Source: Bacteroidota bacterium (GTDB taxonomy: Bacteria; Bacteroidota; Bacteroidia; Bacteroidales; UBA932). From it: a stretch of 53,584 nucleotides of DNA. The first letter of the stretch is position 1. Every line of letters starts with the position of its first letter. The translations under genes were made by a program, and so were the position numbers. The stretch is taken from positions 1-53,584 of the forward strand of contig JAKQLB010000155.1 of the NCBI GenBank assembly GCA_029567375.1, given 5' to 3'. The notes under the pieces were generated by a model. It worked only from the letters and a program-made list of their open reading frames with translations. It had not been told where the DNA came from and searched no databases. Of the stretch, positions 2,979 through 51,470 are shown piece after piece.

Positions 2979-3013
2979 AAAGTAAATAATCAAATCGTAA
3001 ATCAAATATAATG
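2979..3013 (+). repeat. AT-rich period-7 leader segment between CoA-transferase and KAS III-like gene
   Basis: After the stop at 2968 the spacer falls into five 7-mers (for example AATCGTA at 2993-2999 and AATCAAA at 3000-3006). A 24-base stretch here (AAAGTAAATAAT, C or T, then AAATCGTAAAT) recurs almost unchanged at 4096-4119 before the second KAS III-like gene. A shorter match, AATCGTAAATC, precedes the CoA-transferase start near 1629-1640. The repeats could be shared leader elements or degenerated tandem repeats. Confidence 0.5.
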
Positions 3014-4018
3014 TTACCAATAAAAATAGTTGCTACCGGGCTGTATGCTCCGGGTGAACCAATAGGAAATGCAGAATTGAAAAAGCTGACAGGCATTGAG
3101 TTTAATCACGAAAAAACTGAAGAAAAAATCGGAATTAAGCAGCGCCACATTGCTCATCTCAGAAACCTGAATGAAACCACGGCAGATTTTGTAACCAAAT
3201 CGGCCGAAGTGGCTTTGAAAAATGCCGGTTTATCAGCCGATGATGTAGGTCTGTTTATCGTGGCAACCGACACTCCCGAATATATTACTCCCGCAACAGC
3301 CATTATTCAGCAAGGCCGATTGCAGAAGGGTGAAAAATGGAGTATGTCTTTTGACGTTTCAGCATCATGTGCGAGCTTCACAATGGCTTTTGATACGGCC
3401 TCACGGATTCTTGCAAACAATCCGAAAATCAAATACGCATTGATAACGGGAGTTTATAATATGCCTGCATTTATCCGTCCGGGTGATAAGTTCTCTTATC
3501 CGATTTTTGCCGATGGAGCTGCTTCGTTTATTCTTACAAAAGATGATACCGGACAATCAGCCTATATCGGCAATCAGATGCTGACCGACGGAACTCAGTT
3601 TGACTTTATAGGCATTTATGCCGGCGGTTCCAAAATGCCGGTGACCAAAGAAGTTTTGGAAGAAGAGAAAAACGGTCTTCTAAGTCTAAAACCGATGCCG
3701 GGCGACCGAAACGTACGACTTTGGCCGATGGTAGTCGATAAGCTCCTTGCCGAATACAATGTGAAAGCTGACGAGATTGACCATTATATTTTTACACAAA
3801 TCAATCGCTCGGTGATAATCAGAGTAATGGAAGCCATCAATCAACCCGTGGAAAAAGCCATGATGATAATGGATAGATACGGTTACACCGGATCCGGTTG
3901 TGTGCCAATGGCAATGCACGAAGGAATTAAATCGGGTAAAATCAAGCGTGGAGACAAAGTGCTTTTCATGGCATCAGGAGCAGGTTTGTCAGTAGGTAGT
4001 AATTTGTTAGTGTATTAG
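3011..4018 (+). CDS. 3-oxoacyl-ACP synthase III-like (thiolase fold) protein, triad altered
   Basis: The 335-residue length and fold signatures fit the KAS III/HMG-CoA synthase group. The nucleophile region SASCAS places Cys120 in the active site, and the C-terminal DRYGYTGSG loop (around 289-296) matches the usual DRYGNTSAA loop. Two of the three classical KAS III residues are changed. The histidine of PHQAN is Gln263 (FTQIN) and the asparagine of YGNT is Tyr292. KAS III relatives with altered triads include acyltransferases as well as condensing enzymes, so normal fatty-acid initiation is unlikely. It sits between a CoA-transferase and a second KAS III-like gene in what looks like one operon. 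Substrate and reaction are unknown. Confidence 0.8.
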   Translation: MLPIKIVATGLYAPGEPIGNAELKKLTGIEFNHEKTEEKIGIKQRHIAHLRNLNETTADFVTKSAEVALKNAGLSADDVGLFIVATDTPEYITPATAIIQQGRLQKGEKWSMSFDVSASCASFTMAFDTASRILANNPKIKYALITGVYNMPAFIRPGDKFSYPIFADGAASFILTKDDTGQSAYIGNQMLTDGTQFDFIGIYAGGSKMPVTKEVLEEEKNGLLSLKPMPGDRNVRLWPMVVDKLLAEYNVKADEIDHYIFTQINRSVIIRVMEAINQPVEKAMMIMDRYGYTGSGCVPMAMHEGIKSGKIKRGDKVLFMASGAGLSVGSNLLVY

Positions 4019-4132
4019 GAGTTGATTGTGCCTGGATGATGGATGCCTGATGTCCGACGTCAGGCGGCCGATGATGGAGGTTATATGACTGATGTAAAGT
4101 AAATAATTAAATCGTAAATAATAGAGAGTAAA
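4019..4132 (+). repeat. Period-7 degenerate tract between the two KAS III-like genes
   Basis: Immediately after the stop at 4018 the spacer divides into 7-base units. GATG or a one-base variant starts the units at 4035, 4042, 4049, 4056 (GACG), 4070, 4077 (GAGG), 4084 (TATG) and 4091. Units include GATGATG (4035-4041 and 4070-4076), GATGCCT and GATGTCC. The GC-rich words at 4042-4069 stand out from the AT-rich neighbourhood. The same phase runs into the AATCGTAAAT leader motif before the next gene. A weak hairpin, CCTGATGT with ACGTCAGG, is also present. Confidence 0.6.
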
Positions 4133-4134
4133 AT

Positions 4135-15369: not shown

Positions 15370-15379
15370 AAAATATTTA

Positions 15380-15414
15380 TAGTCTGTAGTATGTAGTCAG
15401 TAGTGTGTAGTTAA
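15380..15414 (+). repeat. Period-7 tract touching the atpC stop codon
   Basis: Five consecutive 7-mers start with TAGT: TAGTCTG (15380), TAGTATG (15387), TAGTCAG (15394), TAGTGTG (15401) and TAGTTAA (15408). The AGT core recurs at exactly seven-base steps. The last unit overlaps the atpC stop codon (reverse complement of TTA at 15411-15413). The tract fills the gap between atpC and the next operon gene. Confidence 0.75.
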
Positions 15415-15650
15415 ATGTTTATAAATACACTTATCGTGTTGTCTTGTACCTCTACAAAACCACCCGCTATCGTCATTTTTTTAACCTCACCGTCAGTAAC
15501 AAATGTTAGCGTGCCTTCCGTGAGCGTTGAAACAAGCGGGGCGTGATTATTCAGCACCTGAAACGGACATACGGTTCCCGGCAAGGTTACAGAAGAAACT
15601 TCGCCGGTAAAGAGAGTTGATTCTATAGTGCGAATGACCAATTTCATCAC
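15411..15650 (-). CDS. atpC: ATP synthase F1 subunit epsilon, short form
   Basis: The 79-residue protein carries only the N-terminal beta-sandwich of epsilon (VIRTIESTLFTGEV..., TLPGTVCPFQVLNNHAPLVSTL). The C-terminal helical hairpin that inhibits ATP hydrolysis in E. coli (about 135-residue protein) is absent, so this kind of self-inhibition is not expected. Short epsilon subunits are common in Bacteroidetes to my knowledge. Its start abuts the atpD stop, with no spacer. Confidence 0.93.
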   Translation of the reverse strand: MMKLVIRTIESTLFTGEVSSVTLPGTVCPFQVLNNHAPLVSTLTEGTLTFVTDGEVKKMTIAGGFVEVQDNTISVFINI

Positions 15651-19760: not shown

Positions 19761-19871
19761 GCAATGTTTATTTTTGACAATAAACAAAAGTAGTGGAGAC
19801 CGGAGACCACTTTAAAAACGGGGCGGAACTGAAAAGCCAGACGAGTAAGGGTACTAAAACTTAAATAAATT

Positions 19872-22242: not shown

Positions 22243-23346
22243 TTATTTAACACGCCAGGGAGCATCACCGTAAAGAAGATATTTCTTCACTTTGCGAAGC
22301 CATTTCTGCTCCTCGGTCTTAATATGCTCACCGGTCAACTCCCAGTCAATTTCGCCGGTAATATAACTAAAAAGCATGTTATCCTGAAGTAACGGCTCAA
22401 GTTTGTCATATTCAAAGTCTTCAGGGAACTGCTCACGGACAAATCTTATGGAACGAAGAGCGTGGTTGAGTGCATGATAGGTGCGTCCGGGGATAAACAT
22501 CAGATGAAATCCGAAACATATCTCATCTTTCCAGATTCCGTAAGCCGGCTCAAATCTGCACCATCTTATGTAGAGACTATCGTCGTAGAGCGGATTGGCC
22601 GGATCATTCCAATTTCTAAATCCGTTTTTACGATTAAAGTCATAGAGAGGCTCCATAAAGGGTGCTCCGAATTGCTCAAACGGACGCGTAGTGCCGTGAC
22701 CATAACTGACATTTGTCCCCATCCAGAGACACTGACCGCTATAGAAGTGGGATGTAAAGAGGCCTGCAAAATCGGAAAATGGAGGGATGCTCCAGGGCAT
22801 CAGATCTTTGTTGACCTGCTCCGCCTCCGCCGAGATGATATGCAGATGGAATTTTGCGCTCAGCTCATAATAAAAGAAATTGGCAATCTCACCGAAAGTG
22901 AGTCCGTGCCTGTGCGGGAGACCCATCACCCCCATAGTTCCCTCCACCTGGCGGCCGGAGGAGTTGATCTTGTCCACTATGTAAATGGAGATATCGCTTC
23001 CGGAATGGTGAAGGTCGTAGAAAAGCTTGAGTAAGGTGCGAGTAGCCGTGCAATATCTGGAACCCACATCCTGGAGCTCAATAATCAAAGCATCAATATC
23101 CTGAAGTTTTTCCAGAGGAACAGAGTCACCGATTTCCACCATTTCGACACCGGGACAGCACTCACCATATAGTGAGTGTTCCGGCATGAAAAGGCGGACA
23201 AGATTCCTTTTACGTGCCAGTGTCTCGAAATGATACTCCCCTTTATCGGGATGCCAGGCCACCTGGTTGCATAGCATTGCCAACCTCCCCTTCTTAAGTA
23301 CTAGGTCTGGTTGTTCGAAAAGTGGTGTGGTACGGAAAGAAAACAT
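22243..23346 (-). CDS. DUF1343 (NamZ-like exo-N-acetylmuramidase family) protein, no signal peptide
   Basis: The 367-residue protein shows DUF1343 features: a first segment with LAMLCNQVAWHPD, FMPEHSLYGE, IIELQDVGSRYC (typically LQDVGxR) and RHGLTFGEIAN. NamZ enzymes remove terminal MurNAc from peptidoglycan fragments. This copy starts directly at MFSFRTTPLF with no signal peptide, so it would be cytosolic, whereas known NamZ enzymes are exported. It is placed after glmM and before the phosphatase. Activity is inferred only from the family. Confidence 0.8.
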   Translation of the reverse strand: MFSFRTTPLFEQPDLVLKKGRLAMLCNQVAWHPDKGEYHFETLARKRNLVRLFMPEHSLYGECCPGVEMVEIGDSVPLEKLQDIDALIIELQDVGSRYCTATRTLLKLFYDLHHSGSDISIYIVDKINSSGRQVEGTMGVMGLPHRHGLTFGEIANFFYYELSAKFHLHIISAEAEQVNKDLMPWSIPPFSDFAGLFTSHFYSGQCLWMGTNVSYGHGTTRPFEQFGAPFMEPLYDFNRKNGFRNWNDPANPLYDDSLYIRWCRFEPAYGIWKDEICFGFHLMFIPGRTYHALNHALRSIRFVREQFPEDFEYDKLEPLLQDNMLFSYITGEIDWELTGEHIKTEEQKWLRKVKKYLLYGDAPWRVK

Positions 23347-23350
23347 ACGG

Positions 23351-23392
23351 GGTGCGGGTTACGAGTTACGGGGTACGGGGTGCGGGGTGCGG
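23351..23392 (+). repeat. GC-rich period-7 tract touching the glmM stop codon
   Basis: Six units fill the gap between the NamZ-like start and the glmM stop: GGTGCGG (23351, 23379 and 23386), GTTACGA (23358), GTTACGG (23365) and GGTACGG (23372). The consensus is G-G/T-T-A/G-C-G-G/A. The tract ends one base before the TTA that encodes the glmM stop codon. The words also occur, inverted, in the tract at 41143-41343. Confidence 0.8.
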
Positions 23393-23393
23393 A

Positions 23394-24773
23394 TTAGGAG
23401 AGTATGGAGATAACTTCTTGTGCAAGGGCTTCTGCAACTGTTTCTGTTGGTGCCTCAGCATAAATGCGGATGATGGGCTCGGTATTGGATTTGCGCAGCA
23501 CAAACCACTTCTTTTCAGTGTCAAAATCCACTCTTAAACCATCGATGGTAGTTATGCGCTCAGCTGAATAATGCTTCTTAACCGCCTCAAGGAGAGAATC
23601 GATCACCGCAGGATCGGAAATTTCTATCTTATTTTTGGATAAATAATAGTCGGGATAGGTAGCACGGAGGGTAGATGCTGAGAGCTTCTTGTGAGCCATG
23701 TTGCTCAGGAAGAGCGCTGCACCGATGAGCGCGTCGCGACCGTAGTGGAAGTCGGGAACGATAACACCACCGTTGCCCTCTCCTCCGATGACTGCATTGA
23801 CCTGCTGCATCATAGTGGATGCATTGACTTCACCTACTGCGGAAGCATAATAACGGCAACCGTGGGCCTCGGTTACATCCTTGAGAGCTCTCGAGGAGGA
23901 GATATTGGAGACTGTCGGACCCTTTCTATGTGATAGAACATAGTCAGCAACAGCCACCAGAGTATATTCTTCGCCGAACGCCTCCCCATTCTCAGAGATG
24001 AAAGCAATGCGATCCACATCGGGGTCCACGGCAACTCCGAGATCCGCTCCGGCTGAAATAACCGCAGCAGAGAGATCGGTGAGATTTGAAGGAATCGGCT
24101 CGGGATTGTGTGCGAACCGGCCGTTTGGTTCACCGTTGATTGTGACACACTCCACTCCAAGCGCCTCGAAAAGCTTCGGCATCACAATACCTCCCACAGA
24201 GTTGATGGCATCAAGTACCACCTTAAAGCCTGCTGCTTTAATGGCTTTTAAATCTACGAGAGGATATGATAAAACTGCATCGATATGTGCCTGGGTAAAG
24301 TCTTTATACTCCATATGACCGATTGAATCCACATCTTTGTAATCAAAATCATCGGACTCTGCAACCTCCAGAAGGGCCGCACCCTCTTCCGCCGTCAGAA
24401 ACTCACCCTTCTCATTGAGAAGCTTTAGAGCGTTCCACTGCTTAGGATTGTGCGAAGCGGTGAGAATGATACCACCGTCGGCTTTTTCGAATATCACTGC
24501 CATTTCGGTTGTGGGAGTGGATGCCAGACCGGCATTCACTACATCAATACCGCAAGCCATCAATGTGCCGCAGACAATGGAGTCCACCATCTTTCCGGAG
24601 ATACGGGCATCCCTGCCCACAACCACCTTATAGTGCTTTTGGGATGGAAACTTTCTTTGCAGTTGACGCGCATAGGCCGAGGTGAATTTAACTATGTCAA
24701 CCGGAGTCAGTGCATCGCCGGGAGTACCACCTATAGTTCCTCTGATGCCCGAGATTGATTTAATTAGTGTCAT
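23394..24773 (-). CDS. glmM: Phosphoglucosamine mutase-type phosphohexomutase
   Basis: The 459-residue protein has an N-terminal SISGIRGT motif and the active-site phosphoserine Ser107 in TASHNP, followed by the DPDVDRIAF metal loop and the C-terminal RKSNTEPIIRIYAE phosphate-binding loop. It should interconvert glucosamine-6-phosphate and glucosamine-1-phosphate for peptidoglycan and LPS precursors. A phosphomannomutase role cannot be excluded. It has a -7 box at 24814-24821 and heads a minus-strand cluster with NamZ-like, phosphatase and fucosidase genes. Confidence 0.88.
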   Translation of the reverse strand: MTLIKSISGIRGTIGGTPGDALTPVDIVKFTSAYARQLQRKFPSQKHYKVVVGRDARISGKMVDSIVCGTLMACGIDVVNAGLASTPTTEMAVIFEKADGGIILTASHNPKQWNALKLLNEKGEFLTAEEGAALLEVAESDDFDYKDVDSIGHMEYKDFTQAHIDAVLSYPLVDLKAIKAAGFKVVLDAINSVGGIVMPKLFEALGVECVTINGEPNGRFAHNPEPIPSNLTDLSAAVISAGADLGVAVDPDVDRIAFISENGEAFGEEYTLVAVADYVLSHRKGPTVSNISSSRALKDVTEAHGCRYYASAVGEVNASTMMQQVNAVIGGEGNGGVIVPDFHYGRDALIGAALFLSNMAHKKLSASTLRATYPDYYLSKNKIEISDPAVIDSLLEAVKKHYSAERITTIDGLRVDFDTEKKWFVLRKSNTEPIIRIYAEAPTETVAEALAQEVISILS

Positions 24774-41142: not shown

Positions 41143-41343
41143 GGTGCGAGATACGGGGTACATGTTGCGAGGTTAGTAAACTCAGCACTTCCTCTCAACC
41201 CGTAACACATAACACGCAGCCGAACCACCCCATACCCCGGCAACACGTAACTCGCAACCCGAACCACCCCGTAACCCGCAACGCGTAACTCGCAACACTA
41301 CTCACTCCCCACTACACACTACACACTCGGAACTCAGAACTAC
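41143..41343. repeat. Long period-7 tract between convergent genes, with orientation switch
   Basis: The whole gap between the esterase stop and the oxoamine synthase stop consists of degenerate 7-mers. The left part (41143-41175) uses GGTGCGA-type words; the right part (from 41197) uses inverted-type words such as GTAACAC and CGCAACC. The AAC core recurs at seven-base steps in runs broken by register shifts. At the right end ACT recurs at 41297, 41304, 41311, 41318, 41325, 41332 and 41339, a perfect series ending at the stop codon. The opposite orientation of the two halves allows long imperfect pairing. Confidence 0.8.
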
Positions 41344-42606
41344 TTAATACTTAATAGACATGTCTCTAATCTCCTCTGCATCATAAACACCCTTGTCGAG
41401 CTTCACCTTGATCTCGGCGAATGCATTGAGAGTATATTCCACATCCTCGAGTGAATGAACTGCAGTAGGAATGATACGATACATTATGATACCTTGGGGC
41501 ACCACGGGATATGTAACTGTAGAACAGAAAATTTTGTAATTTTTTCTAAGATCAATCACGATGTTTGTAGCCTGTGCTAAGTTGCCATCCATAAACACAG
41601 GGGTAACACATGCCTCCGCTTCACCGATATTGAAACCTCTTTTACGGAGACCTTCTTGAAGTGCCCTTGTAACAACCCAGAGTTTTTCACGAAGACGTGC
41701 ACCCTCTTTACCACGTATGATTTCGAGACGTTTGAGAGCACCCTCTACGATAGGCATGGGAAGTGACTTTGCATAAATCTGTGAACGGAGATTATACCTG
41801 AGATAATTGATGATGGCTCTGGGACCGGCAACGAACCCGCCGATGGTAGCCATTGATTTTGCGTATGTACCTATGTATAGGTCAATTTCATCCATCACAC
41901 CGAAATGCTCGGACGTTCCACGGCCTTCCTTACCCATAACTCCGAAACCATGTGCATCATCGATAAGAATGCGGAAATTGTACTTCTTTTTGAGATCCAC
42001 GATATCTTTAAGAATACCGAGAGCTCCGGTCATACCGTAAACACCCTCAGTAAGGAGGAGAACTCCTCCCCCTTTGGCCTTAGCCTCAGCGCAAGCTCTT
42101 TTAATGATCCTCTCGCAATCGGCAATATCATTGTGACGGTATTTATACTTGGTGCCGAGATGGAGGCGAATTCCATCAAGAAGACATGCATGACATTCGT
42201 TGTCATATACTACCACGTCATGCCGGCAAAGAAGCGCATCAATGGTAGATACAATGCCCTGGTAACCGAAATTGAAAAGGAAACAATCTTCTTTTTTCTC
42301 GAAATCGGCAAGCTCCCTTTCGAGTCTTTCGTGGAGAGCGGTATGTCCGGTAAGCATTCTGGAGCCCATAGGATAAGCCATACCCCATTTTGCGGCTCCT
42401 TCTGCATCTGCTTTGCGTATCTCAGGATGATTGGCAAGACCAAGATAGTTGTTTATACTCCAACATAGGACTTCTTCGCCCTGGAAAAACATCCTGGGAC
42501 CAATTTCACCCTCAAGTTTGGGAAACATAAAGTAACCGAAAGCTTTATCACGATATTGGCCCAAAGGACCGCCTGAGTCTTTGCTTAATCTTTCAAAAAT
42601 GTCCAT
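41344..42606 (-). CDS. Alpha-oxoamine synthase family PLP enzyme
   Basis: The 420-residue protein has the fold-type I PLP layout of the family that includes KBL, serine palmitoyltransferase, BioF and cysteate acyltransferase: NYLGLANHPE at 53-62, DDAHGFGVMG at 216-225 and PLP lysine Lys250 in GTYAKSMATIGG. It joins an acyl-CoA to an amino acid. A close match to the named serine palmitoyltransferase or KBL is not evident, so a lipid-base (sphingoid or sulfonolipid) role is possible but not shown. It is 29 bases downstream of gyrB and probably cotranscribed. Confidence 0.85.
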   Translation of the reverse strand: MDIFERLSKDSGGPLGQYRDKAFGYFMFPKLEGEIGPRMFFQGEEVLCWSINNYLGLANHPEIRKADAEGAAKWGMAYPMGSRMLTGHTALHERLERELADFEKKEDCFLFNFGYQGIVSTIDALLCRHDVVVYDNECHACLLDGIRLHLGTKYKYRHNDIADCERIIKRACAEAKAKGGGVLLLTEGVYGMTGALGILKDIVDLKKKYNFRILIDDAHGFGVMGKEGRGTSEHFGVMDEIDLYIGTYAKSMATIGGFVAGPRAIINYLRYNLRSQIYAKSLPMPIVEGALKRLEIIRGKEGARLREKLWVVTRALQEGLRKRGFNIGEAEACVTPVFMDGNLAQATNIVIDLRKNYKIFCSTVTYPVVPQGIIMYRIIPTAVHSLEDVEYTLNAFAEIKVKLDKGVYDAEEIRDMSIKY

Positions 42607-42635
42607 GGTAAAAAATATTTAGGTTTTAGTAATTA

Positions 42636-46336
<3,701 letters not shown>

Positions 46337-46338
46337 CT

Positions 46339-49329
46339 CTATTTCAGTTTATCAAGACGCATTTTTACCTGTTCCTTCACATCATCTGCATCTCCGGTAG
46401 GCTGGTATCCCTCGAGTACGCTTTCATAGGTTGCCCTGGCCTGTTCCACATCTCCCCTATCCGCAAATGAGTCACCCAGTATAATGAATGCTTTTGCAAG
46501 CCAGTAAATCTGGGAAGTTTCGGAGTCGGAAAAATCATACACACGATTCTCAACCGCAAGGAAATCACCCGCTCCGTAAGCATCAGTAATCAGCAGATAA
46601 GTAGCTTCCGCCCCATAATTGTCGTGAGGATTGCGGGAAAGAGAATTGAGAATAGGCTTGGCCTCTTCTCTGTTATCAAGATATAGAAGGCTTTTGGCAG
46701 TAATATATTCCGCCTCACGTCGCATCTCATCGGGAAGTTCGGAAACTCCGATCACTCTTTTTGCGTCTGCAACGGCCTCTTCATACTGCTTATTATTGTA
46801 ATATGAGCGCATACGACCGAAATAGCCGGTATTTTTCATATTTTCAGTGCTTGCAATGTAAATGAGGGATTCGTATGCGGTCACAGCCGTCGGGTAATGC
46901 TCGAGTTCATATGAAATATCTGCATAATTGAGAGTGGCAGCCTCGGCAAAGGGGCCTTCACCCAGTTTTATAACCTTGAAATAAGCATCTGATGCAGCCT
47001 CTTTGCGCCCTTTGGCCTTAAGAGACTCGGCCAGATAATAATATGCCTGTGCCGTTTTGGAACCTGAAGGATAGTTTTTCACAAATGACTGCAGAGATGT
47101 GATGGCTGAGTTATAATTGCCGGAAAGATAGCGGTGCTCGGCCGCATTGAAGAGCATCAGTTCCTTTTCATCGGCACTCTTGATGTCCGACATTCCTAAA
47201 GTCTCGAGGTATGCGAAATACTCTTCAGGCTTATTGATAGTCTGATAGACACTTTCCATACCCGATATGGCATTTGGTACCTCGGGAGATAGCGGCATGC
47301 CTTCGATGATGTTCTTATAATATTCTATAGCTTTAGTGTATTTCCCATTATTGGCGTTGATCATCGCCAGCTCAAGCATCGATTTTGTGAAGAAAATACT
47401 ATCCGCATCATGTCCTATAAGGGTGTGGAAGCAATCTGCCGCATCATCATCAGCCCCGCGCTGCACTAAAGTGCGTCCCAGTTCGAATAGGCACTGAGAA
47501 TAGAGTTCCGCGTTGCGGTTGATTTTAAGCGCCTGTCTTAATATGGATATTTTTCTGGTGTCATTGCCCAGGAGGCCGTAAGATACAGCGCCCTGATATG
47601 CCGGATATAGGTCGCTGGAGGTGGGATATCTGTTGAAGACCCGTTCATAAGTGGCAGCTGCATCGGTATAGTTGTTCTGCATGAAGTAGGAGTCGGCCAG
47701 GCGAATCCTTGCATCCCTTTCAAACTGCTTGCGGCCACTCATTCCGAGGTACTCGGAAAACCATTGCTGCGCACTTGCAAATTTACCCCACATGAAATAA
47801 CTGTACGCAAGGTTGTATACTGCAGTCCGGTATTGCTCCGAATCTAGGAAATGGGGATTTTCCATCAGGCGGAGATTGATGTCGGTAGCTTGACGGTATT
47901 TTCCATTGCGGAAATGAGACTCTGCAAGCCAGTAATTGGCAAGCGCCTCAAGGCGAGGATCATGGCGTCCGTTCTCTATAGAGAGTTCCAGCATCGGAAC
48001 TGCCGATCTGTATCCCCTGTTTTCAATAAGTTGCATCGCCCTGAAGAATGCCGCTTTCTGGAGATTGGCCGAGGATTCATCTGAAAGTTCCCGAATCTTC
48101 GTAAGGGCTGTCACTGCCGAGTTATAATCATTGCTCAGCAAGAAAGCTGCTGCAATGTAATTGTTTATGATATCATCTTTTCCACTCTCAGGATAAAGCT
48201 CCATATAATTTTCGAAACCGGAGATATCGCCGTTTACATCAAAAGAGAGTTTGGCATGATTGAAAAGAGCATCTTCTTTGATGACACTGTCAAAATCGGA
48301 TTCAGAGGCCGCTTTGAAGGCTTCCATCGCAGCAATTTTATTGTGCAGGCGGAGAGAACTGTTGGCGCTGTAATAGTAAGCGCTCTGACCAAGTGCATCT
48401 TCATTTCCGACAACATTGCTGAAGGACTCTATGGCCTGCTTGAATGACTGAAGGGTGTAGGAAAGAAGACCGGAGTAATAATGGTCCTTTCGGGTAAGGT
48501 TGCCTCCGGATGTGGAGAACATATCGAAATACTGGGCAGCAAGTGTCGGCTGTCCCATAGAAAAATAGGCCTCTGAGACTATTCTGGCCAGATTGACCTG
48601 CAAATCGCGATCAAGCGTGCTGAATATGGCAGGACCACGGTCAATTACATAACGGTAATTACCGAGCATAAACTCAGATTCTACTGTATAATAGGAAGCC
48701 AGTACCGAAAACCGGGGATCTTTCTCCGCTTTGCGGAAAAGAGGCAGAGCCGAAGCAAAATCCTTTTCCAGATAGCGCACGTAACCCAGATAATACTGAC
48801 TTGGCACGGAGAAAGGACTGAAATCGCCCTCGATAATGGCAGTAAGTCTCCGTGCAGCCACATCGGTGTCGCCTGCCCTTATATAACAATATGCGCTTTT
48901 GAAATCATATTCAATCTGTTCCTCTGCATAGAGGAAGGGCTTTTTTATGGAATCATAGATGACAAGTGCAGCGGCATACTCCTCTCTGTCGAAAAGACGC
49001 GATGCGAGTGCAAACTTGACCATCTGAAGCTCCGGAGCATTGGGATATCTATCCTCGAAATTCTTGACCAGACCGGCAATGTTGGACCTATCAAGACGGA
49101 TGGCGCACATTGTCTTATAGGCCTCCACCTGAATTGCAAAAATGGAGATATCGCTGTCCGGATCAGGCGTGACAAGGTTTAACATCTGCTCTGCCGAATA
49201 GAAGGCTCCCTTTCTGTAAAGGTCAAGCGCCGACTCAAGACGGCCGACACGATGCTCCTGTGCCATGACTTGCCCTGACAGCATCAGAGCAAAATAAGCA
49301 AGAACCAATATGAGGCTTTTCCTTTTCAT
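46339..49329 (-). CDS. Large tetratricopeptide-repeat periplasmic protein
   Basis: From ATG 49329 the protein has 996 residues. The ATG at 49356 would place nine extra residues before the signal peptide, which runs from MKRKSLILV to VMAQ, so the shorter start is preferred. The mature protein is nearly all TPR units, for example YYLAESLKAKGRKEAASDAY and YNLAYSYFMWGKFASA. TPR scaffolds bind other proteins, here likely at the periplasmic face of the outer membrane with the adjacent barrel. A -7 box lies at 49423-49430. Confidence 0.88.
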   Translation of the reverse strand: MKRKSLILVLAYFALMLSGQVMAQEHRVGRLESALDLYRKGAFYSAEQMLNLVTPDPDSDISIFAIQVEAYKTMCAIRLDRSNIAGLVKNFEDRYPNAPELQMVKFALASRLFDREEYAAALVIYDSIKKPFLYAEEQIEYDFKSAYCYIRAGDTDVAARRLTAIIEGDFSPFSVPSQYYLGYVRYLEKDFASALPLFRKAEKDPRFSVLASYYTVESEFMLGNYRYVIDRGPAIFSTLDRDLQVNLARIVSEAYFSMGQPTLAAQYFDMFSTSGGNLTRKDHYYSGLLSYTLQSFKQAIESFSNVVGNEDALGQSAYYYSANSSLRLHNKIAAMEAFKAASESDFDSVIKEDALFNHAKLSFDVNGDISGFENYMELYPESGKDDIINNYIAAAFLLSNDYNSAVTALTKIRELSDESSANLQKAAFFRAMQLIENRGYRSAVPMLELSIENGRHDPRLEALANYWLAESHFRNGKYRQATDINLRLMENPHFLDSEQYRTAVYNLAYSYFMWGKFASAQQWFSEYLGMSGRKQFERDARIRLADSYFMQNNYTDAAATYERVFNRYPTSSDLYPAYQGAVSYGLLGNDTRKISILRQALKINRNAELYSQCLFELGRTLVQRGADDDAADCFHTLIGHDADSIFFTKSMLELAMINANNGKYTKAIEYYKNIIEGMPLSPEVPNAISGMESVYQTINKPEEYFAYLETLGMSDIKSADEKELMLFNAAEHRYLSGNYNSAITSLQSFVKNYPSGSKTAQAYYYLAESLKAKGRKEAASDAYFKVIKLGEGPFAEAATLNYADISYELEHYPTAVTAYESLIYIASTENMKNTGYFGRMRSYYNNKQYEEAVADAKRVIGVSELPDEMRREAEYITAKSLLYLDNREEAKPILNSLSRNPHDNYGAEATYLLITDAYGAGDFLAVENRVYDFSDSETSQIYWLAKAFIILGDSFADRGDVEQARATYESVLEGYQPTGDADDVKEQVKMRLDKLK

Positions 49330-49422
49330 CAATAAAAAACTCACATAAAAACGCATATATCAGGTGGAGCGTTTAGCTGCAAGGCATTACAACAAACCGA
49401 CTCCTGCCTAAAATAGGAAAAA

Positions 49423-49430
49423 CAAAAATA
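49423..49430 (-). promoter_or_regulatory. -7 box of the TPR gene
   Basis: The minus strand reads TATTTTTG, matching TAnnTTTG, about 94 bases before the ATG at 49329. No -33 box is obvious in the A-rich sequence. Confidence 0.5.
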
Positions 49431-49474
49431 CAAAAAAAATCTCATTTACAGCAGTTCGGTGATAAAGGGCTCAA

Positions 49475-50239
49475 TCAGAATACAAATCCATAACCGAGGC
49501 TGATGTTTAAATTTCTGCCTGCGGTTGATGTTTCGTACAACTTTCTGTCGTGCACAGTTTGATCTCTCTGAACTTCCAGTTCAGCAAAGGATTTTTGTAT
49601 TGGTTGCTGGAAGTTTATATCCAGAAACAGTGCACCGCTGTCGGAAATAAGATACCGGGTTGATAAACCAACATTTAAGAATATGGATGATGCATGCTGT
49701 CTATATGAGACATTATATCTGACACCATCTTCCTTTACACTTTTCGAAGATTCTTTATCGAACAAATATGTCATATATCCAATCCCTACCCCGGGATGTA
49801 TGCTCCATTTATTTTGCTCAAATCGATAGATGATTCCAATATCAAAAGCCGGATATATTTTCGTAACCATTGGGATACTTACATCTACTAACTTTTTGAT
49901 TATATCTATTACAATATCAGCAATACCGGAAGGATTGTACTCCGACTTTTCGGTTGAATAGAGATTAGCATGAAACCTGGCATATCCTCCAAACTTCTCT
50001 GCAAACAGATAGGTGAACCTAAATCCGGCTAAAGGAACAATCTTGGGCTTGGATTCGAATAACTTGGATCCCGGAGGTGAGCCGGGACTGATTAGGTCAA
50101 AATTTGCTCCTGCCATCAGATCGAGTAGGAATTTTGAGTTCTGACTATTTAAGTGAGAATTCCCCGAGTTCAGTTGTTGACCATAGGAAAACAAACTAAA
50201 AAAGAGAAATATAAAGATCACGCAGTAATGTCTAATCAT
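49475..50239 (-). CDS. Small outer-membrane barrel protein downstream of the radical SAM gene
   Basis: The 254-residue protein has a signal peptide ending YGQQ and alternating strands up to the terminal NISLGYGFVF, an outer-membrane barrel ending in phenylalanine. One sampled line (49861-49920) has 17 of 60 G+C, much lower than neighbouring genes. It follows the radical SAM gene by 91 bases, the gap being a period-7 tract. A shared transcript is possible but not shown. No family is recognised. Confidence 0.65.
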   Translation of the reverse strand: MIRHYCVIFIFLFFSLFSYGQQLNSGNSHLNSQNSKFLLDLMAGANFDLISPGSPPGSKLFESKPKIVPLAGFRFTYLFAEKFGGYARFHANLYSTEKSEYNPSGIADIVIDIIKKLVDVSIPMVTKIYPAFDIGIIYRFEQNKWSIHPGVGIGYMTYLFDKESSKSVKEDGVRYNVSYRQHASSIFLNVGLSTRYLISDSGALFLDINFQQPIQKSFAELEVQRDQTVHDRKLYETSTAGRNLNISLGYGFVF

Positions 50240-50272
50240 GAGTATGTGTTATACAGTATTTAGTTGTAGTAT

Positions 50273-50335
50273 GGAACTCAGAACTAGCTACTAGATAACT
50301 TACTCAGAACTCCATACTTTGGACTCGAAACTAAT
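50273..50335 (+). repeat. Period-7 tract touching the radical SAM stop codon
   Basis: ACT recurs at 50276, 50283 and 50290, then after a register shift at 50302, 50309, 50316, 50323 and 50330. The last unit runs into the radical SAM stop codon (complement of CTA at 50331-50333). The 14-mer GGAACTCAGAACTA at 50273-50286 also occurs at the right end of the tract at 41143-41343 (41330-41343). Confidence 0.75.
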
Positions 50336-51404
50336 TCAATTGTCCCATCATTTCCAAATGGCATTGCAACAGTTCGCCGGTTGACTCGTCGCGTAGGTGC
50401 AAACCGTTTCCTTCACAGTATTTATAAGCTTTACAAGTGGCGCATTTCCCTGTTTTGGTCCAGGAACGGTCACGCATTATCTGATATTTGGTATTCCAGA
50501 CTGTCCAGAAGTCATCTTTGTAGATATTCCCCTGAATGTAATCACCACGCAAGCTGGGACATGCGCTAATATCGCCGTTTGCCAACACCGAACCGATGTG
50601 AATGCCGGCCTGACAAAAGAAAGGTGCGTCGCGCACTTGCATTTCATAATCTGCCAAATAGCCCTCACAGCCATATGAAGCGCGAATTATCCCCTCTTTA
50701 CGGGTCTGTTTAATGAAGTCCAGCATCTGCACAAACTCATCTACGGATAGTCTGAGTAGCGGGTTATCTTTTGCTCTTCCTTTAGGGAAAACGGTAAAAA
50801 GCCGCCAGTGAGTAACGCCCAGCGAAATAAGCAACTCCTTGAGCTTATGCAGGTCCAGCAATGATTTTTTATTGACACAAGTAACCACGTCATAAACCAA
50901 ATCGGGAGTGGAGGCTACTCGCCGTATAGCATCTACTGCACGCTTCCAGGAGCCTTTTTTGCCGCGGAACCACTCGTGTGACTCTGCCGTATATCCATCC
51001 AGACTCACGGTGACCGAGCGCAATCCGGCACGAAGTAATCCGTCAAGTCGTTCTTGCGAAAGTCCCCATCCGTTGGTTACAAATCCCCAGGGATATCCCA
51101 TGTCGTACATGGCTCTTCCGCACTCTTCCAAATCTTTTCGCATCAATGGTTCGCCACCGGTAAGCACAATCATGGTCTTATTGGGGTTAACATGCGGACG
51201 AATATCCGAGAGCACTTTCAAAAAGTCCTCTTTTGGCATATCGGGCGTAACTGATTCTCTTGTGCAATCACTTCCGCAATGGATACAGTTGAAATTGCAA
51301 CGCAAAGTGCATTCCCAAAAGAAATAGGTAAGTTCGTGTAGTTTTGCTTGCGTTTTTCTGTGTTCGCGGTATAAATTCAGTATGATTTTTTTCCGTAATT
51401 TCAT
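50331..51404 (-). CDS. Radical SAM/SPASM enzyme of the lipoprotein-associated type
   Basis: The 357-residue protein has the radical SAM cluster cysteines 36, 40 and 43 in CNFNCIHC, plus a C-terminal SPASM-type region with CQAG, ACPS, CATCKAYKYC and CHLE cysteines for additional Fe-S clusters. From memory it matches the family TIGR04133 (rSAM partner of a putative lipoprotein). It lies 66 bases after the lipoprotein gene. SPASM enzymes modify peptides, so the lipoprotein or an unseen peptide is the likely target. Substrate and chemistry are not known. Confidence 0.88.
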   Translation of the reverse strand: MKLRKKIILNLYREHRKTQAKLHELTYFFWECTLRCNFNCIHCGSDCTRESVTPDMPKEDFLKVLSDIRPHVNPNKTMIVLTGGEPLMRKDLEECGRAMYDMGYPWGFVTNGWGLSQERLDGLLRAGLRSVTVSLDGYTAESHEWFRGKKGSWKRAVDAIRRVASTPDLVYDVVTCVNKKSLLDLHKLKELLISLGVTHWRLFTVFPKGRAKDNPLLRLSVDEFVQMLDFIKQTRKEGIIRASYGCEGYLADYEMQVRDAPFFCQAGIHIGSVLANGDISACPSLRGDYIQGNIYKDDFWTVWNTKYQIMRDRSWTKTGKCATCKAYKYCEGNGLHLRDESTGELLQCHLEMMGQLN

Positions 51405-51470
51405 CTTTATATCCGGTATAGGTTACTCATCGTTTACTCCGCACGTAAGGATACCTTCTCTTTCATACAA

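What the first reader, a model, noticed from the sequence alone, without database searches (positions are those of the whole stretch)
41143..41343. A class of intergenic tracts with 7-base periodicity and changing words
At least five gaps (4019-4132, 15380-15414, 23351-23392, 41143-41343, 50273-50335) are built of 7-mers whose core recurs at exact seven-base steps: GATG, TAGT, GGTGCGG/GTTACGG and ACT. Words differ between loci, so this is not one repeated sequence, yet the period is the same. Five of them start or end at a stop codon. Tracts at 23351 and 41143 share words, and those at 41143 and 50273 share the 14-mer GGAACTCAGAACTA. I know of no name for this pattern. Possibilities: replication-slippage relics, terminator-like or protein-binding arrays, or a mobile or templated element.
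Basis: seen in the sequence. Interest (0 to 1): 0.7.

Follow-up and report, generated by a model that had tools for sequence, protein, structure and literature searches.

The report
Seven-base repeat arrays filling gene gaps
Short stretches of DNA built from seven-letter words that change along the way fill many gaps between genes in this bacterium and its relatives, often starting right at a gene's stop signal; they look like a fast-changing kind of repeat that grows in seven-letter steps, related to repeats known in other bacteria whose cause is still unsettled.

Summary
In detail: each of the five gaps beats shuffles on at least one lag-7 test, and all abut a stop codon. It is general. In sister species, family and class samples, 7-nt degenerate arrays outnumber other periods; only 8 comes near, in the family. 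A far-order sample shows no lead for 7, and 100 kb of E. coli has no arrays. Lexicons differ between clades; this genus uses AGT-core words. In 12 of 425 ortholog groups an array starts within 12 nt of the stop codon, which is TAG in 7 of 12 against 84 of 413. Tracts persist at orthologous stops but change words; 7 nt is the commonest array indel after 1 nt and rare in other gaps. The window carries a 7-nt duplication over the 41344 gene's stop. At ftsW-murG its genome has a ~260-nt array-bearing insert absent from 6 of 6 relatives found.

Best reading: degenerate heptameric tandem repeats, a known kind (cyanobacteria, Xanthomonas, Beggiatoaceae), remodelled by slippage, spread between loci as blocks, trimmed by selection at stops, terminators and starts. 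Why seven is unexplained.

The parts
41143..41343 (.). Two-armed heptad tract between convergent genes: from the 41344 stop (minus strand) AGT words then GTTGCGG/GTTACGG words; from the 41142 stop (plus strand) G words. Contains a 38-nt higher-order repeat.
   Evidence: array-like DNA at the orthologous stop in 7 of 7 genomes compared, G-type words only in G017
41341..41356 (-). 7-nt tandem duplication spanning the stop codon of the 41344-42606 aminotransferase; G061 and G012 have one copy
   Evidence: (period 7, 41341-41356)
23347..23393 (.). Heptad tract filling the whole gap between the stop of 23394-24773 (phosphoglucomutase/phosphomannomutase) and the start of 22243-23346 (NamZ)
   Evidence: array-like DNA in the ortholog of 3 of 3 relatives, 34-112 nt
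15380..15411 (.). ACT-word tract (minus strand) directly after the stop of the ATP synthase epsilon ORF 15411-15647 (minus)
   Evidence: present and partly duplicated as a block in G017, the only relative compared there
50240..50330 (.). Two-armed tract: AGT words from the TAG stop of 50331-51404 (minus), ACT words before the next start
   Evidence: array in 5 of 6 genomes (not G014)
4019..4134 (+). Weaker GATG-type tract after the TAG stop of 3011-4018; G017 has 44 nt without an array there

Best explanation
These are degenerate heptameric tandem repeats, a kind of bacterial micro-satellite. Shown: units of 7 nt are gained and lost between close orthologs; tracts persist at the same gap across species while their words turn over; they abut stop codons without running on into the gene. 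Inferred: the steps arise by strand slippage or unequal pairing inside an array, and at its edge copy whatever sequence lies there. Arrays spread between gaps as blocks (ectopic conversion or insertion), so that a lineage shares a lexicon and a word order. Selection allows them only in dispensable DNA, so they run up to the stop codon (which becomes the TAG of the first heptad), to a terminator's T-run, or to a start codon. Selection on translation signals sets polarity: the strand rich in stops reads away from the upstream gene's end, and the strand nearly free of start triplets leads into the next start. No function of the array itself is needed. Why the step is seven is not explained by anything measured here; a contact length of the polymerase is a published guess (Mrazek 2007, seen only as reported in PMC4692102 and PMC4679880).
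For: Period: arrays of score >=14 by lag in gaps: lag 7 own 2 (both are the window's), close species 17, family 74 loci 24, far order 1, class 10, high-count genomes 4, cyanobacterial plasmids 3; lag 8 0/0/11/1/1/2/0; lag 6 0/2/1/0/0/0/0; lag 9 0/1/1/1/0/0/0; lag 5 none. Indels in arrays of close orthologs: 7 nt 11 of 46 listed (one event seen twice, others may be), against 5 of 336 in other gaps. The window's 7-nt duplication at the 41344 stop copies the array edge with the gene's last letters, not an array word. Array gaps vary in length between orthologs (41143: 78-487 nt), most other gaps little, with exceptions such as 49357, 51405 and 51981. Local homogenisation: TTACGT runs three times in a row in G012 where the window mixes GTTGCG and GTTACG. 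A neutral slippage-plus-mutation simulation gives mean per-phase dispersion 1.5-3.0 against 3.3 observed over 25 arrays (of 36; 11 with under 10 changes dropped), so the core-plus-slot look mostly needs no selection. Stops: 7 of 12 against 84 of 413 groups TAG, Fisher p 0.005; 0 of 24 arrays near a stop show a lag-7 segment in the last 60 coding bases. Polarity: near stops 21 away, 2 toward; near starts 7 away, 3 toward; where both orientations occur the order is + then - in 7 of 7 gaps (orthologs not collapsed). AGT strand 10.4 start and 9.8 stop triplets per 100 nt, ACT strand 0.4 and 1.6. Gain: ftsW-murG, insert in 1 of 7 genomes.
Against: Slippage alone does not explain why non-orthologous loci share words and their order (T words before R words 20, the reverse 7, orthologs not collapsed), nor the ~260-nt gain. 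7-nt indels are not enriched outside arrays (5 of 336, against 10 of 6 nt and 8 of 8 nt), so there is no sign of a general 7-nt slippage bias. Lengths of all-array gaps do not differ by multiples of 7 (23347: 47, about 59, 34, 112). Core AGT positions differ less between orthologs than slot positions (15 of 315 against 70 of 442; 11 of 108 against 58 of 153); ascertainment can explain about a factor of two, not clearly all. Observed dispersion is a little above the simulation. Near-start polarity (7 against 3) is weak. Twenty other own contigs (119 kb) gave no array at score 14 and three segments at 9-10; plain autocorrelation there does not favour lag 7.
Confidence: 0.6

Rival explanations
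1. A dispersed, non-autonomous mobile element (MITE- or REP-like) about 200-260 nt long. Its left arm is AGT then G heptads, its middle AT-rich, its right arm GCCAAYR heptads in the opposite sense. It inserts at a TA such as that of a stop codon; heptads are how its arms slip and decay.
For: ftsW-murG: ~260-nt insert in the window's genome, empty overlapping ATGA in 6 of 6 relatives found, 2 more gave no match. Parts of the insert match places in 7 of 7 genomes, 14-36 matches each, mostly to its left arm. A 72% match to 132-258 of the insert lies between two permease genes in G017, with an ortholog in G012; G062 has one heptad there. Seven of 29 array rows, from 4 loci, open with TAGTTCTGAG.
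Against: No fixed ends or clear target duplication (a TA is possible, but two letters prove little). Matches between arms of periodic DNA may reflect a shared lexicon rather than copies. The arms are not inverted copies of each other. Most loci compared have arrays in most sister species; clear absence was seen at ftsW-murG (6 genomes), L243 (G062), L228 (G017), 50240 (G014) and nearly at L338 (G062). No transposase was sought. The middle match is weak in held DNA (41 nt, E 0.013).
Confidence: 0.17
2. A binding array: a DNA- or RNA-binding protein recognises a short core (AGT here) every 7 nt, and the spacers are free to vary. Cold-shock OB-fold proteins, reported to bind one per heptamer with weak specificity (PMC4679880 passage), would be a candidate.
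For: Core less variable than slot in orthologs; one array keeps TC nearly unchanged over 22 heptad steps (L301); persistence at orthologous stops.
Against: Words at one site are replaced between species (L243 locus: AGT words in 3, G words in 1, none in 1; L338 similar). Lexicons differ between genera, 8-nt arrays exist, and one tract changes from period 6 to 8. Both orientations occur. Simulated neutral slippage reproduces most of the core/slot contrast.
Confidence: 0.12
3. RNA or DNA hairpins (terminators or 3' end stabilisers) made from opposed heptad arms.
For: 41144-41293 and 50250-50340 fold better than most shuffles (z -2.8, 0 of 200; z -2.2, 8 of 200); opposed order in 7 of 7 gaps with both orientations, several of them orthologs.
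Against: Single-armed tracts 23340-23400 and 15370-15420 do not fold (z +0.9, +0.4). Arrays lie beyond terminator-like T-runs, judged by eye, in L007, L179 and L239. Many loci have one arm.
Confidence: 0.05

Closest known systems
Heptameric simple sequence repeats of Xanthomonas (GGGAATC) and Nostoc (GGGGA[C/T]T), PMC4692102 (passages seen)
   Same: 7-nt unit, degenerate, intergenic; near the stop on the coding strand, including overlap of the stop, and near the start on the other strand; mostly the same gene pairs in relatives, with length and sequence variation
   Different: There one word family with G-tracts and a preference for four units, read as quadruplex-forming; the commonest words here (AGTGTGT, AGTATGT) have no G-tract, and vocabularies change along one array
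TAACTGA heptamer repeats of Beggiatoaceae, cyanobacteria and some Bacteroidetes, PMC4679880 (abstract, section 10 and passages seen)
   Same: 7-nt arrays, mixed with other heptamers in Microcystis and some Bacteroidetes; indels mostly in 7-nt increments between two Cyanothece strains; some overlap stop codons; stops in all frames
   Different: There sets of one word, in the Beggiatoa genome mostly just upstream of starts; here AGT, G and other words, mostly after stops
Degenerate heptanucleotide repeats of the Nostoc tRNA-Leu intron P6b loop (PMC3488679 passages); cyanobacterial STRR (name recalled and seen in listings)
   Same: Degenerate heptads, copy-number variation, arms that pair into a hairpin
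   Different: Inside a structured intron; here intergenic and often one-armed

Membership tests
Degenerate heptameric tandem repeats (STRR / heptameric SSR) | tandem unit of 7 nt | tested here: met
Degenerate heptameric tandem repeats (STRR / heptameric SSR) | mainly intergenic | tested here: met
   lag-7 segments in coding DNA: window 0, close species 0, family loci 7 against 27 in far less gap DNA
Degenerate heptameric tandem repeats (STRR / heptameric SSR) | copy number varies by 7 nt between relatives | tested here: met
   11 of 46 array indels; but whole-gap length differences are not multiples of 7
Degenerate heptameric tandem repeats (STRR / heptameric SSR) | strand preference and overlap at stop codons as in Xanthomonas | tested here: met
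   the near-start half is weak (7 against 3)
Quadruplex-forming heptameric repeats | a G-tract in every unit | tested here: not met
   word counts: AGTGTGT 47, AGTATGT 34, AGTTCTG 21 lack GGG
MITE / REP-type mobile element | presence against empty site in close relatives | tested here: met
   one locus, ftsW-murG, 1 of 7 genomes
MITE / REP-type mobile element | constant inverted ends and target duplication | tested here: inconclusive
   recurrent TAGTTCTGAG start (7 of 29 rows, 4 loci); only a possible TA at the insert
MITE / REP-type mobile element | related transposase | not tested
   no search made
Intrinsic terminator | GC stem followed by a T-run at the array | tested here: inconclusive
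   two of four tracts fold no better than shuffles, two do; no terminator scan was run; three arrays follow a separate terminator-like hairpin by eye
TAACTGA repeats | the word TAACTGA in tandem | not tested
   word not searched in this genome

The most novel reading that the evidence does not exclude
Across phyla, a molecular ruler of seven nucleotides, not only inheritance of old arrays, writes these tracts: an enzyme or single-strand-binding protein with a seven-nt footprint makes tandem copies of whatever sequence sits at an array's edge. Period stays near seven (less often eight) while words drift freely, and the arrays propagate into gaps that selection leaves open.
Probability: 0.13. 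Interest if true: 0.85.

Novelty: new variant of a known kind. Interest (0 to 1): 0.52.

Why it matters
Heptameric repeats are reported as the most abundant class of longer simple repeats in most genomes of one survey (Mrazek 2007, as told in PMC4679880), but why seven is open. A genus with many arrays per genome, sister species at about 81-98% identity, an empty site and a 7-nt event caught at a stop codon makes that question testable. The arrays also go with a switch of stop codons to TAG and change the spacing between genes, and can separate overlapping genes, as at ftsW-murG.

Tried and rejected
Chance: rejected by shuffles. A single repeated sequence: rejected, the shared 14-mer occurs only 3 times in the genome. 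Assembly artefact: arrays recur at the same stops in separate assemblies. Strict inheritance of period 7: weakened by 8-nt arrays and one 6-to-8 switch in the family. Strong selection on a core: per-phase dispersion mostly within a neutral simulation. Hairpin as common function: not borne out. A known RNA family at the tracts: none at gathering score; only DUF805 RNA elsewhere. AGT as a universal core: rejected; many genomes have as many or more hits to the reversed control pattern (G355 24 against 705). G164, G184, G304, G355 and G317, picked for high pattern counts or controls, gave no lag-7 array in the stretches sampled.

Limits: genes were called by my own longest-ORF routine, not a trained caller; score thresholds differed between calls (9, 10, 12, 14); include loci fetched because they hold AGT arrays, so on unselected, ortholog-grouped DNA is the cleaner test; polarity and word-order counts are not ortholog-collapsed; the family sample is 74 loci of one gene neighbourhood (L065-L138 of the 80 found), so related arrays repeat. 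At L188 a seventh, partial match (G010) was not examined. Papers outside the open library were not seen.

Full report
What was checked. The window is contig C349 of a 3.38-Mb, 400-contig assembly, 89% complete. Its nearest named records are Bacteroidales metagenome assemblies, and more distant ones include Candidatus Cryptobacteroides. The five tracts are real and periodic at seven, and each abuts a stop codon. Over the window's 34 gaps lag 7 has z 4.8; no coding segment at lag 7 reaches the threshold. The 50273 tract is weak on the best-segment test (96 of 2000 shuffles as good) but not on total matches (1 of 2000).

How general. In 341 kb from six sister species, lag-7 segments in gaps number 13 against a shuffle mean of 0.2; lag 6 has 1 and the other lags from 4 to 13 none. 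In 868 kb from 74 loci of the wider family there are 27 at lag 7 and 18 at lag 8 (shuffle 0.2-0.3); other lags from 4 to 13 have 0 to 3. At a stricter threshold the class sample of 20 genomes has 10 at lag 7 and 1 each at lags 8 and 11; four 50-kb pieces of two cyanobacterial plasmids have 3 at lag 7 and none at other lags from 4 to 13; 100 kb of E. coli has none. Two results go the other way: the far-order sample has 1 at lag 7, no more than at lags 8, 9 and 13, and 20 further contigs of the own genome had no strong array and no special lag-7 autocorrelation. A whole-genome search shows why the latter is sampling: the pattern AGT every seven, four times, has 220 overlapping hits in the own genome against 4 for the reversed control. 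Five AGTs in a row occur in 191 of 296 Bacteroidota genomes, 134 times in the own genome with no control hit; but in many others the control does as well, because the core word differs.

Anatomy. In the window's genus the commonest words in 53 AGT chains are AGTGTGT, AGTATGT, AGTTCTG and AGTTCCG; a second dialect is GTTGCGG/GTTACGG. A typical array reads TAG TTCTGAG TTCCGAG TGTGTAG TGTGTAG, so that the stop codon is the core of the first heptad, while the coding side shows no array (0 of 24). In three loci the array instead follows a terminator-like hairpin and T-run, judged by eye. On unselected, ortholog-grouped data 12 of 425 gene ends start an array within 12 nt; TAG is the stop in 7 of these 12 against 84 of 413 (p 0.005). 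At two loci of the wider family (L131/L132 and L094/L097) the array-bearing genes end in TAG; the listed orthologs of the first end in TAA or TGA, one of them (L108) with a TAA-based heptad run of its own, and of three orthologs of the second one also ends in TAG. AGT strands near a stop read away from it in 21 of 23 cases, and where both orientations occur they face each other in 7 of 7 gaps. The AGT strand is rich in start and stop triplets, the ACT strand nearly free of both. The strand rule and stop overlap match those reported for Xanthomonas and Nostoc (PMC4692102, passages).

How they change. Array DNA follows the same aminotransferase stop in 7 of 7 genomes, with in-register word changes. 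Array gaps change length; most others little, with a few exceptions. Seven nt is the commonest array indel after one nt, 11 of 46, against 5 of 336 in other gaps; many of the short array indels come from poorly aligned distant pairs, and the window's own event is counted twice. That event is informative: relative to G061 and G012 the window carries a second copy of seven letters spanning the aminotransferase stop, so the step copied gene-edge DNA rather than an array word. At the L243 locus four of five species have an array, in two dialects; at L188 six of six shown; at L228 six of seven; at L338 five of six, in different words, and G062 has a single heptad.

Gain. Between ftsW and murG (named from Pfam families) the window's genome has about 260 nt starting TAGTTTTGAGTG, where six relatives (81-95% identical in the 400-nt flank) have an overlapping ATGA; two further genomes gave no match. 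Its left part matches many places in all seven genomes, and its right arm (GCCAAYR words) recurs at other loci. I infer that arrays can reach new sites as blocks.

Mechanism and its limits. Slippage in 7-nt steps, spread of blocks between loci and trimming by selection account for most of this; a neutral simulation makes similar core-and-slot patterns. Not explained: why seven. No 7-nt excess exists outside arrays, which suggests that the period is mostly inherited within arrays; but 8-nt arrays and a 6-to-8 switch inside one tract show it can change, and the same number in distant phyla suggests a physical preference. The polymerase-contact idea is from Mrazek 2007 as reported in PMC4692102 and PMC4679880; I did not see that paper. 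A cold-shock protein binding one per heptamer is mentioned in PMC4679880 and is only a lead.

Verdict. A real, widespread and little-explained feature of a known kind, with anatomy that I did not find in the passages and searches seen: changing lexicons along one array, the stop codon in register as TAG, dialect replacement at one site, and a gain with empty sites.

Noticed in passing
window 41242-51413: The window and G012 are 98.5% identical here but 92.7% and 91.3% on either side; one edge of this likely exchanged block falls inside the 41143 array.
   Followed up: partly
L104 12055-12121, L111 12817-12882, L114 248-292, L115 8849-8975: Eight-nt arrays of the same style, two with an AGT core, and one tract (L115) that changes from period 6 to 8.
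   Followed up: partly
L301 10521-10679: A 159-nt array in a class-level relative keeps TC at one phase (1 and 0 changes of 22) while the other phases change 6-13 times.
   Followed up: partly
window 19788-19856: DUF805 RNA, 74.9 bits, the only Rfam match in the window at gathering score.
   Followed up: no
L131 after 1299 and L118 after 2329: Other palindrome-like repeats (TTGCGAGGAGGAACGACGAAGCAATCC; CCCTGAGCCTGTCGAAGGGCC) sit just after the same stop in orthologs; I recall both as widespread in bacteria, not checked.
   Followed up: no
window 51405-51470: The orthologous gap is 655 nt in G014 and 572 nt in G062 with gene-like sequence, against 66 nt here and 17 in G012 and G017.
   Followed up: no
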